This document shows positions 1 through 20,144 of a stretch of 64,000 nt of DNA, in pieces; the stretch's first letter is position 1, and each line of letters opens with the position of its first letter. Origin of the DNA: Gammaproteobacteria bacterium (GTDB lineage Bacteria > Pseudomonadota > Gammaproteobacteria > SZUA-229); the NCBI GenBank assembly GCA_013041745.1, contig JABDRN010000055.1:1-64000 (forward strand). Reading direction: 5' to 3'. A program made the position numbers and the translations under genes. The notes beneath the pieces are model-generated. The model was given only the letters and a program-made list of their open reading frames with translations. It did not search any database and was not told where the DNA came from.

Positions 1-1
1 G

Positions 2-688
2 GATTACAGCTCTCGTTATCTACTCGCCTGTGAAAGTCTCGAATCGACGAAGGAAAGCTTTGCTTTTACCGTGTTTGAACGTATTTTCAGGGAATTCGGG
101 CTGCCCAAAGCTATTCGCTCAGATAACGGTGTCCCTTTTGCGTCACCCACAGCTTTGTTTGGTTTGAGTAAATTATCTGTCTGGTGGTTACAGCTTGGCA
201 TTGCTGTTGAGCGCATTAAACCAGGCAATCCGCAGCAAAATGGCCGTCATGAACGCATGCATTTGACCTTAAAAAAGGAAGCGACTCAACCGGCTTCCTT
301 TAACTTTTTACAGCAGCAAAGTCGTTTTGATGATTTTGTTGAGGCGTTCAATAATGAACGCCCTCACCAGGCCATCGGGATGAAATATCCCGGTGAGCTG
401 TATACACCTTCAGTGAGAGAATATGCATCGCCTGTACCACCTGAATATCCTTATCATGATAAGACCATACAGGTCACACGATGTGGACGGATATGCCTTG
501 AAGGAAGAAAGATTAACCTGAGTACCGTTTTTGCGGGGCAATTTGTGGGAATACGTGAAGTCAGCGACAAGATTTGGCTTGTCAGCTTCATGGATTATGA
601 TTTAGGCTTCTTTGACGAGGAGTCAAATAAAGTAGATCCTGCCGAGAACCCGTTTATGGCAAAACTGTTACCTATGTCTTCGGTATAA
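2..688 (+). CDS. IS481-type transposase, C-terminal part (5' end outside window)
   Basis: This is the DDE integrase-core transposase of an insertion sequence, cut by the left window edge. The frame is open from base 2 (DYSSRYLLACES), so the GTG start at 71 in the ORF track is not the true start. The catalytic residues appear in order: D in DYSSRY, D in IRSDNGVPF, and E in NPQQNGRHERMH. The tail (RCGRICLEGRKINLSTVFAG, then LVSFMDYDLGFFD) resembles the conserved C-terminus of IS481-family enzymes; this family call rests on recalled similarity. No frameshift is seen in the visible part. It ends just before a probable IS terminus and a tRNA fragment. Confidence 0.85.
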   Translation, partial: DYSSRYLLACESLESTKESFAFTVFERIFREFGLPKAIRSDNGVPFASPTALFGLSKLSVWWLQLGIAVERIKPGNPQQNGRHERMHLTLKKEATQPASFNFLQQQSRFDDFVEAFNNERPHQAIGMKYPGELYTPSVREYASPVPPEYPYHDKTIQVTRCGRICLEGRKINLSTVFAGQFVGIREVSDKIWLVSFMDYDLGFFDEESNKVDPAENPFMAKLLPMSSV

Positions 689-712
689 AGTGTTACCTAT
701 GTTCCCGGTCAG
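666..712 (+). repeat. Probable right end of the IS (doubled terminal motif)
   Basis: The word TGTTACCTATGT occurs twice, at 666 and 691, the first inside the transposase stop region and the second just after it. The second copy continues as TCCCGGTCAGGA and is probably the outward-facing terminal repeat. The left end lies outside the window, so the inverted partner and any target duplication cannot be checked. Confidence 0.45.
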
Positions 713-715
713 GAC

Positions 716-745
716 CTTATTTATTTGGTCGGGATAGCAGGATTT
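716..745 (-). repeat. Partial copy of tRNA-Pro 3' end
   Basis: These 30 bases repeat exactly at 899-928. They contain the last part of tRNA-Pro (T-arm and acceptor 3' strand, the CCA, and about 10 downstream bases). The fragment lacks the anticodon and 5' half, so it cannot be a tRNA. It lies 183 bp from the full gene and abuts the IS end. Confidence 0.85.
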
Positions 746-898
746 ATGAAATACATCCATGTATTTCACCCTTCGGGCCGGCTTTCTCAAAAACAGAAAC
801 CCGTTAAAAATGGCATCATGCCATTTTTCATGAACCTGTACGCTTTAACGAACAAGTCCTTCCAGACAAATAAATAAGCCACCTCGTTTTTGAGGTGG
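746..898 (-). mobile_element. Hairpin-rich insert between tRNA-Pro and its 3' fragment
   Basis: This 153-bp segment separates the complete tRNA-Pro from its duplicated 3' end. It has no convincing ORF. It contains a palindrome at 747-768 (TGAAATACATCCATGTATTT), the adjoining CCCTTCGGGCC, a second hairpin at about 806-828 (AAAATGGCATCATGCCATTT) and the tRNA terminator arm. The first palindrome with CCCGAAGGGTGAA recurs next to tRNA-Ser, and a related palindrome lies next to tRNA-Val. That it is a small mobile element is inference. Confidence 0.45.
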
Positions 899-909
899 CT
901 TATTTATTT
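868..909 (-). terminator. Terminator of tRNA-Pro
   Basis: This is a perfect 18-bp inverted repeat (AAATAAATAAGCCACCTC and its complement) around a 6-base loop, starting directly after the encoded CCA on the tRNA strand. The GC core flanked by A/T arms is typical of a factor-independent terminator. Confidence 0.8.
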
Positions 910-985
910 GGTCGGGATAGCAGGATTTGAACCTGCGACCACTACACCCCCAGTGTAGTGCGCTACCAGACTGCGCTATATCCCG
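909..985 (-). tRNA. tRNA-Pro (anticodon GGG)
   Basis: The minus strand folds as a full cloverleaf of 77 nt with encoded CCA. The acceptor stem is CGGGATA/TATCCCG, and the anticodon stem CTACA/TGTAG encloses the loop CTGGGGG, giving anticodon GGG. The T-arm reads GGTTCAAATCC. Its 3' end is duplicated at 716-745. Confidence 0.95.
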
Positions 986-8695: not shown

Positions 8696-8772
<77 letters not shown>

Positions 8773-8935
8773 GAAATTCAGGTATTAAATAGACTATGTT
8801 ATGGTGACGCTACAGCTTCCTCGGCAATTGCTCCTGCATTGCTCTACCTAACTACATCCATGTAGTCGTGCCTCCGCTTAAATTCAAGCTTCGTCCCGGC
8901 CAGACTCCCGTCTGGCGTTCGCAGCTCCTTGCCCG
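8773..8935 (-). mobile_element. Hairpin-rich insert between tRNA-Val and its 5' fragment
   Basis: This 163-bp segment lies immediately upstream of tRNA-Val on its strand. No ORF is convincing. It contains the palindrome ACTACATCCATGTAGT (8851-8866), close to the one at tRNA-Pro, and further hairpins such as CCAGACTCCCGTCTGG and GGCAATTGCTCCTGCATTGC. Size and composition resemble the inserts at tRNA-Pro and tRNA-Ser. The mobile-element reading is inference. Confidence 0.4.
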
Positions 8936-8962
8936 CCGCTCACCCAACTGAGCTATGCGCCT
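8936..8962 (-). repeat. Partial copy of tRNA-Val 5' end
   Basis: On the minus strand the first 19 bases, AGGCGCATAGCTCAGTTGG, match the 5' end of tRNA-Val exactly and then diverge within the D-arm (GTGAGCGG against TTAGAGCG). The copy starts 190 bp from the full gene and lacks an anticodon arm, so it is not a functional tRNA. Confidence 0.85.
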
Positions 8963-9146
8963 ATTTAAGGTCGCGAACAGTACCAAAATATAACACTTTA
9001 CTCAAGAAACTTTTTAAACAAAAGCGAAGTATATTAGAAAAATTAAACATAGATTTACAAAACAAATACCTTACAATATCAATGTGTAAATAATTAGACA
9101 CACACATTTCCATACAAGTATTTGAACAACAAAGGGACATTTAGAT

Positions 9147-19860: not shown

Positions 19861-19878
19861 AATCCAGTCACAAACATT

Positions 19879-19900
19879 AGAGAGGTGGCCGAGCGGCTGA
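19879..19900 (+). repeat. Partial copy of tRNA-Ser 5' end
   Basis: AGAGAGGTGGCCGAGCGG repeats the acceptor and D-arm of the full tRNA-Ser 178 bp downstream, with one difference soon after (CTGA against TTGA). No anticodon arm follows, so it is a fragment. Confidence 0.88.
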
Positions 19901-20056
19901 CTAAAATTGCCTGGAGCAATTTTGAACATAATCGACGTTTTTTCGATTATGACCCGAAGGGTGAAGTACAGGAAGTACTGAGTGACGAGCACGCTGCGTG
20001 CGGCTTGGCTCATATAAAAAAGGAATATAGTGTAATAGCATAATTTACAAATTTAT
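19901..20056 (+). mobile_element. Hairpin-rich insert between tRNA-Ser fragment and tRNA-Ser
   Basis: This 156-bp segment is full of hairpins: AAAATTGCCTGGAGCAATTTT, CATAATCGA..TCGATTATG, AGTACAGGAAGTACT (19965-19979) and GCACGCTGCGTGC. CCCGAAGGGTGAAGTACA is nearly the same as the motif next to tRNA-Pro. It has no ORF. It looks like a member of the same short element family; this is inference. Confidence 0.45.
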
Positions 20057-20144
20057 AGAGAGGTGGCCGAGCGGTTGAAGGCGCACGCCTGGAAAGTGTG
20101 TAAACCGAAAGGTTTCGAGGGTTCGAATCCCTTCCTCTCTGCCA
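20057..20144 (+). tRNA. tRNA-Ser (anticodon GGA)
   Basis: This is an 88-nt class II tRNA with encoded CCA. The acceptor is AGAGAGG/CCTCTCT, and the anticodon stem CACGC/GTGTG around CTGGAAA gives anticodon GGA. The variable arm is ACCGAAAGGT and the T-arm GGGTTCGAATCCC. Its first 18 bases are repeated at 19879. Confidence 0.95.

What the first reader, a model, noticed from the sequence alone, without database searches (positions are those of the whole stretch)
716..985. tRNA-Pro followed by a duplicated 3' end across a hairpin-rich 153-bp insert
An exact 30-bp repeat of the tRNA-Pro 3' end and flank lies 183 bp from the full gene. Similar structures occur at the only two other tRNA genes in the window (Val, Ser), with units of 190 and 178 bp. 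The inserts share a palindrome: TGAAATACATCCATGTATTT here, ACTACATCCATGTAGT at Val, AGTACAGGAAGTACT at Ser, with CCCGAAGGGTGAA adjoining at Pro and Ser. Three of three tRNA genes is unlikely by chance. It suggests a small non-autonomous element that targets tRNA gene ends and regenerates one end on insertion. At Pro the 3' end is copied, at Val and Ser the 5' end. An IS481-type element abuts this one.
Basis: partly seen in the sequence, partly recalled or inferred. Interest (0 to 1): 0.85.

Follow-up and report, generated by a model that had tools for sequence, protein, structure and literature searches.

The report
tRNA-linked CsrA-binding RNA repeats
The odd half-copies beside the tRNA genes are units of a known but neglected repeat family (E. 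coli's tRNA-linked repeats, including the RrB RNA between the rrnB terminators) whose hairpins look built to soak up the global regulator CsrA, and the family is far more widespread than described.

Summary
The inserts at tRNA-Pro and tRNA-Ser match one 77-nt covariance model (64 and 77 bits); the Val insert is a degenerate relative recognised by eye. The same model finds E. coli RrB, the sRNA between rrnB terminators T1 and T2, at 77 bits (E 2e-18), and the E. coli tyrT RtT repeats more weakly. These are therefore tRNA-linked repeats (TLRs), known since 1978: a four-hairpin RNA core set inside a truncated copy of the neighbouring stable RNA. Across 121 copies the stems covary (23 of 24 pairs changed on both sides), while GGA stays in the loops of hairpin 1 (112/120) and hairpin 4 (109/120). 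RrB binds CsrA through GGA motifs (published gel shifts), so I infer CsrA-binding RNAs made with tRNA. What looks new: tRNA-linked units carrying CsrA loops, units copying the tRNA 5' end, dispersed copies, and presence in 119 of 274 sampled gammaproteobacterial genomes. The mobile-element idea is partly supported: many independent sites, an empty Val site in relatives. But the elements are not confined to tRNA genes, many are inherited in place, and no mobilising enzyme was found. CsrA binding here is untested.

The parts
909..985 (-). tRNA-Pro(GGG), intact
   Evidence: ARAGORN, Rfam RF00005 68.9 bits
867..910 (-). 19-bp perfect hairpin just after the tRNA (terminator-like; the strict terminator scan does not call it)
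   Evidence: inverted repeat I1; terminator form with a T run in relative L185; scan negative
829..866 (-). proximal part of the repeat unit: degenerate inverted T-arm copy followed by T-arm left half (CAGGTTCA)
   Evidence: sequence, fold
744..829 (-). repeat core at Pro: hairpins H1, H2, CCCGAAGGG, H4
   Evidence: R2 64.4 bits, E 2e-14; fold z -4.6
748..767 (-). H4 hairpin GAAATACATGGATGTATTTC, loop AUGGAU: CsrA-type site
   Evidence: sequence; CsrA SELEX consensus in PMC7652899
716..745 (-). copy of the tRNA-Pro 3' end plus its flank, closing the unit
   Evidence: 30/30 identity
8696..8772 (-). tRNA-Val(GAC), intact
   Evidence: ARAGORN
8944..8962 (-). copy of the tRNA-Val 5' end (D-arm type unit)
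   Evidence: 19/19 identity; absent in relatives L185, L186, L188, L189, L192
8773..8943 (-). degenerate unit in the tRNA-Val leader with three hairpins holding GGA in or at the loop (8899-8916, 8851-8866, 8824-8842)
   Evidence: fold; not found by the covariance model
8977..9005 (-). likely tRNA-Val promoter: TTGAGT (9000-9005), 17 nt, TACTGT (8977-8982), GC-rich start region; now upstream of the 5' fragment
   Evidence: read by eye, conserved directly before tRNA-Val in L185, L188; not called by the simple scan
19878..19900 (+). copy of the tRNA-Ser 5' end (D-arm type unit)
   Evidence: 22/23 identity
19901..19985 (+). repeat core at Ser; H1 loop CUGGA, H4 loop AGGAA
   Evidence: R2 76.9 bits, E 1.5e-17; fold z -3.1
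19991..20011 (+). inverted D-arm copy that pairs with the 5' fragment to close the unit
   Evidence: fold
20057..20144 (+). tRNA-Ser(GGA), intact
   Evidence: ARAGORN

Best explanation
The three features are tRNA-linked repeat (TLR) units of the E. coli RrB/RtT kind. A unit is a roughly 75-nt RNA core of four hairpins (H1, H2, CCCGAAGGG, H4) placed inside the T-arm or D-arm of a truncated copy of the neighbouring tRNA, with an inverted copy of that arm on the proximal side, so that the unit closes on itself. T-arm units lie 3' of the tRNA and end in its 3' end; D-arm units lie 5' of it and begin with its 5' end. Shown: family identity, structure by covariation, conserved GGA loops in H1 and H4, the position of the Val unit downstream of a conserved tRNA promoter motif, an empty Val site in relatives. 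Inferred: the unit is transcribed with the tRNA, cut out when the tRNA is processed, and its paired GGA hairpins bind CsrA, so that stable-RNA synthesis titrates CsrA. For Pro and tmRNA, where the unit follows a terminator or terminator-like hairpin, low-level read-through as published for RrB is the likely route.
For: R2, built without any E. coli sequence, scores E. coli RrB (rrnB T1-T2 interval) 77.0 bits, E 2e-18, and the four E. coli tyrT RtT units 28-31 bits. Rfam RtT matches the Gln and Asp inserts and inserts in distant genomes over its full length, up to 42.8 bits. Published: RrB is transcribed by read-through of T1, binds CsrA (KD about 100 nM), and GGA-to-UUU changes reduce binding (PMC8144298). 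Covariation: 94.6% cells paired, 23/24 pairs changed on both sides, 0/500 shuffles as high. GGA in H1 112/120 and H4 109/120, in distant genomes 43/47 and 46/47. H4 reads CA(N)GGA(N)G in 137/166, like the CsrB repeat CAGGA(U/A/C)G and SELEX RUACARGGAUGU (PMC7652899). Same-spacer units in 7 of 8 genera at Pro-TGG/Arg keep GGA while H2 and H4 stems change. csrA is present. Val: promoter motif, then 5' fragment, unit, tRNA.
Against: No expression or binding data for this organism. Units at Phe and Leu are antisense to the tRNA, and GGA is kept in antisense copies too (10/12 both loops) and in copies without a tRNA nearby (72/84), so conservation does not depend on tRNA co-transcription. H1 in the window Pro unit has lost GGA (AUGAU), and the Gln unit lost it in H4. 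E. coli tRNA-linked TLRs have no GGA loops at tyrT and were predicted not to bind CsrA (PMC8144298). Element and csrA are barely associated across genomes (hand count: 106/235 csrA+ against 13/39 csrA-), and some csrA-less drafts keep GGA loops. Deleting rrA, rrB and rrF in E. coli has only modest effects (PMC8144298). RtT matches stay below Rfam's gathering score of 45.
Confidence: 0.72

Rival explanations
1. The core is primarily a small non-autonomous mobile DNA element that inserts into A-rich steps in hairpin loops (tRNA T- and D-loops, REP and MITE hairpins). Its conserved hairpin loops are recognised as folded single-stranded DNA by an unidentified transposase or integrase, and any RNA role is secondary.
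For: Dispersed copies in unrelated repeat contexts; near-identical copies in G270 and G146; empty Val site in relatives; up to 76 copies in one genome; GGA kept even in antisense and tRNA-free copies.
Against: The near-identical copies are carried inside larger repeats and may have spread with those. Same-locus units persist across genera with compensatory changes and intact GGA loops. No enzyme was found. The E. coli homologue is an expressed CsrA-binding RNA (PMC8144298). A test for a closing stem across all flanks was negative.
Confidence: 0.2
2. Decayed tandem tRNA duplications, with the hairpins as debris.
For: The Met locus (C111, C88) shows degenerating tRNA-like copies without the core.
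Against: All other inserts share one structured core that is not tRNA-derived and also occurs away from tRNAs.
Confidence: 0.03
3. The unit acts on its own tRNA (processing or terminator element), the copied tRNA end being a decoy for processing nucleases, with no link to CsrA.
For: Each unit carries the exact tRNA end and an inverted arm that could pair with it; the 3' end of E. coli RrB maps just after the copied 5S end (PMC8144298).
Against: The most conserved positions are the GGA loops and linkers of the core, not the tRNA part, and the core persists where there is no tRNA.
Confidence: 0.08

Closest known systems
E. coli RrA/RrB/RrF, rRNA-linked tRNA-linked repeats (PMC8144298)
   Same: Same core (R2 77 bits), same two GGA hairpins, copied 3' end of the adjacent stable RNA, location after or between terminators
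   Different: Linked to 5S rRNA in Enterobacteriales; here linked to Pro, Val, Ser and other tRNAs and tmRNA, also on the 5' side
RtT RNA, Rfam RF00391, E. coli tyrT
   Same: Inverted T-arm, T-arm left half, core with CCCGAAGGG, tRNA 3' end; tandem units as at Asp here
   Different: E. coli units lack GGA loops; the matches here stay below the gathering score (best 42.8 against 45)
CsrB, CsrC and RsmX/Y/Z sponge RNAs
   Same: GGA in hairpin loops, motif CAGGA(U/A/C)G
   Different: Separate genes with many sites; here few sites per unit, riding on tRNA transcripts; PrrB_RsmZ has no match over its cut-off in the genome
TwoAYGGAY, Rfam RF01731
   Same: Two GGA-loop hairpins, proposed CsrA binder (PMC4333381), same Rfam clan CL00106 as CsrB; present in this genome and in 7 congeners
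   Different: A different fold; often a neighbour of the core (30-350 bp), not the inserts themselves
REP and MITE repeats
   Same: Dispersed, palindromic, non-coding
   Different: The core is a four-hairpin unit with covarying stems and constant loops, found inside such repeats

Membership tests
tRNA-linked repeats (TLR) | 18-19 bp at the 3' end of the unit identical to the 3' end of the upstream tRNA or rRNA | tested here: met
   Pro 30 bp; also Gln, Asp, Pro-TGG, Phe. For Val and Ser the copy is of the 5' end, which is a variant
tRNA-linked repeats (TLR) | Homology to a known E. coli TLR | tested here: met
   R2 finds RrB at 77.0 bits, E 2e-18, and tyrT RtT units at 28-31 bits; R2 finds Pro and Ser, not Val
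RtT RNA RF00391 | Score at or above the gathering threshold (45 bits) | tested here: not met
   Window units have no listed match at E up to 5; Gln 36.2, Asp 30.2 and 22.5, best relative 42.8
CsrA-sequestering RNA | Two or more GGA motifs in hairpin loops | tested here: met
   Ser H1 and H4; Val three hairpins; family 101/120 with both loops. The window Pro unit keeps only H4
CsrA-sequestering RNA | GGA-dependent CsrA binding | not testable with these tools
   Shown by gel shift for the E. coli homologue RrB (PMC8144298), not for these units
TwoAYGGAY RF01731 | Covariance model match over cut-off at the inserts | tested here: not met
   No match in the window or in the insert loci; matches elsewhere in the genome
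Site-specific non-autonomous mobile element | Empty site in a close relative | tested here: met
   Val: five relatives empty
Site-specific non-autonomous mobile element | Defined ends and a partner enzyme | tested here: inconclusive
   Core begins with A or CT before H1 and ends in RUAA; no systematic search for an enzyme was made

The most novel reading that the evidence does not exclude
tRNA-, tmRNA- and rRNA-linked repeats form a class-wide system in Gammaproteobacteria that couples stable-RNA transcription to CsrA activity: many tRNA transcripts release CsrA-binding RNA. CsrA loops would be the ancestral state, lost from E. coli tyrT repeats, and the cores spread as insertions into stable-RNA arms on either side of the gene.
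Probability: 0.4. Interest if true: 0.75.

Novelty: new variant of a known kind. Interest (0 to 1): 0.52.

Why it matters
tRNA-linked repeats were first described in 1978 and until recently had no known function; the only members with a tested partner are three rRNA-linked ones in Enterobacteriales. Finding the same CsrA-type core next to many different tRNAs across the class turns an enterobacterial curiosity into a general hypothesis that can be tested directly: growth-rate-regulated stable-RNA operons carrying their own CsrA sponges. It also gives a covariance model that finds such units, and adds a 5'-linked form.

Tried and rejected
(1) First alignment A1 contained one row whose 5' half I had mistyped (contig C81 ends there); it was dropped and A2 was used for all models. 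(2) A closing stem formed by the flanks in every copy: duplex energies did not differ from mismatched flank pairs, so it is claimed only for units inside tRNA arms. (3) csrA presence against element presence: weak and confounded by incomplete drafts. (4) PrrB_RsmZ in relatives: nothing over cut-off, and weak hits also ring in control genomes. (5) Orientation as evidence for transcription: 69 sense against 12 antisense, but the loops are equally conserved in both, so not used as proof. (6) Promoter and terminator scans were uninformative. (7) The second Pro copy at the end of contig C90 (97% identity over 503 bp) may be a strain variant of the same locus; not counted. (8) Three E. coli tRNA loci fetched as further controls (argX-proM, proL, the glnX-leuW cluster) and one stretch without tRNA gave no R2 match. 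(9) Most literature searches missed the family; it was found only through a CsrA/tRNA-precursor query. (10) A whole-record search of E. coli MG1655 with R2 was not possible.

Full report
OBSERVATION. The repeats are as described: Pro 30/30 bp (716-745, 899-928), Val 19/19 bp (8754-8772, 8944-8962), Ser 22/23 bp (19878-19900, 20056-20078), spacings 183, 190 and 178, at the only three tRNAs of the window. The window is part of a 2.97-Mb draft with 138 contigs and 34 tRNA matches. Partial copies also flank Phe, Asp, Pro-TGG, Gln and Met, and the core turns up at tmRNA, Leu-UAA and a Ser 5' fragment just after csrA. Closest PheT relatives are uncultured gammaproteobacterial MAGs, about 80-87% identical.

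ANATOMY. Aligning the inserts gives one core: H1 with a CNGGA loop, linker AAC, H2, the CCCGAAGGG hairpin, H4 with an A(N)GGA(N) loop, then RUAA. In 3' units the core splits a copy of the T-arm; an inverted T-arm copy precedes it and the tRNA 3' end follows. In 5' units (Ser, Val) it follows the copied 5' end up to the D-arm, and an inverted D-arm copy follows. Pro and Ser match the model at 64.4 and 76.9 bits; Val does not match and is a degenerate unit that keeps three GGA hairpins.

STRUCTURE AND CONSTRAINT. A model from ten copies (R1) finds 26 places in this genome, 33 of 40 relatives and every congener. On 121 aligned copies 94.6% of cells pair, 23 of 24 pairs show changes on both sides, and no shuffle or column slide comes near. 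That alignment was fitted to the structure, so it leans towards it, but the size of the effect is far beyond the controls. Against this stem turnover, GGA stays in H1 (112/120) and H4 (109/120), and in 43/47 and 46/47 of distant copies. The second model, R2, finds the core in 119 of 274 genomes drawn across the class.

KNOWN RELATIVE. Rfam's RtT model (E. coli tyrT) matches several inserts over its full length but below its threshold. A literature search led to the tRNA-linked repeats of E. coli (PMC8144298): 22 units at ten tRNA or rRNA loci, each ending in 18-19 bp of the upstream RNA's 3' end. The rrnB unit, between terminators T1 and T2, reads ACAAATCCGCCGGGAGCGGATTTGAACGTTGCGAAGCAACGGCCCGGAGGGTGGCGGGCAGGACGCCCGCCATAA and scores 77.0 bits with R2. 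That RNA, RrB, is transcribed by read-through of T1, processed, and binds CsrA in a GGA-dependent way. H4 of the present family also fits the CsrB repeat CAGGA(U/A/C)G and the CsrA SELEX consensus RUACARGGAUGU (PMC7652899).

COMPARATIVE LOCI. Val: relatives L185, L186, L188, L189 and L192 have no unit; in L185 and L188 a TTGAG(T/A)-17-TA(C/G)TGT motif with a GC-rich start region lies directly before the tRNA. In the window the same motif precedes the 5' fragment, so the unit sits in the tRNA leader (motif read by eye). Pro-GGG: L185 and L186 carry the unit after a hairpin of terminator type; H4 differs between window and L185 (GAAATACATGGATGTATTTC against GCAATGCAAGGAAGTATTGC) with the GGA kept; L187 and L192 lack it. 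Pro-TGG/Arg: seven of eight genera of the family keep one or two cores and the tRNA 3' copy in the same spacer. Tandem units at Asp and longer flank repeats in G021 and G022 indicate expansion and contraction of arrays.

MECHANISM. Shown: family identity, structure, GGA constraint, location in a tRNA leader at Val. Inferred: co-transcription, release during tRNA processing, CsrA binding, and titration of CsrA in step with stable-RNA synthesis. For Pro and tmRNA the units follow a terminator-like hairpin, as RrB follows T1, so low-level read-through is likely. Against: antisense units at Phe and Leu and copies away from tRNAs keep the loops as well, so transcription from other promoters, or selection by a mobilising protein, is not excluded.

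MOBILITY. The core occurs in REP-like (GCGGAA|core|TCTTGTTCCGC), MITE-like and other repeats. The variety of sites implies many independent insertions. High-copy identical sets (G270, G146) lie inside larger repeats and may have travelled with them. No enzyme was identified.

VERDICT. New members, and a 5'-linked variant, of a known repeat family; probable CsrA-binding RNAs; distribution and tRNA linkage far beyond what was described in the papers I could read.

Noticed in passing
G000 contig C81 (L014:2006-2209): tRNA-Leu(UAA) is interrupted by a group I intron (Rfam RF00028, 63.2 bits), unusual for a gammaproteobacterium as far as I know.
   Followed up: partly
G000:C131:46403-46541 and C128:107593-107731: TwoAYGGAY RNAs over cut-off in this genome and in seven congeners (up to 18 matches in one), often within 30-350 bp of the repeat core; two GGA-loop RNA families seem to share composite repeats.
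   Followed up: partly
G000:C35:18327-18728: csrA is directly followed by a tandem array of the repeat units with a tRNA-Ser 5' fragment, so the putative target gene itself neighbours the units.
   Followed up: no
window 1-714: 3' part of an IS481-like transposase (rve_3 domain, ORF 71-688) whose end abuts the Pro unit; C90:51311-51813 holds a 97% copy of IS end, unit and tRNA-Pro at a contig end.
   Followed up: partly
G000:C111:9878 and C88:7742 (L022, L041): Degenerate tRNA-Met copies without the core: a decayed tRNA array unrelated to the repeat family.
   Followed up: no
L178:693-868: Sub-threshold match (40.8 bits, gathering 70) to the Xanthomonas sRNA family sX4 at a tRNA-Ser with adjacent units; sX4 may be another member.
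   Followed up: no
G000:C14:90752-90831: A unit follows tmRNA, lying between two intrinsic-terminator-like hairpins, the same layout as RrB between T1 and T2 (read by eye).
   Followed up: partly
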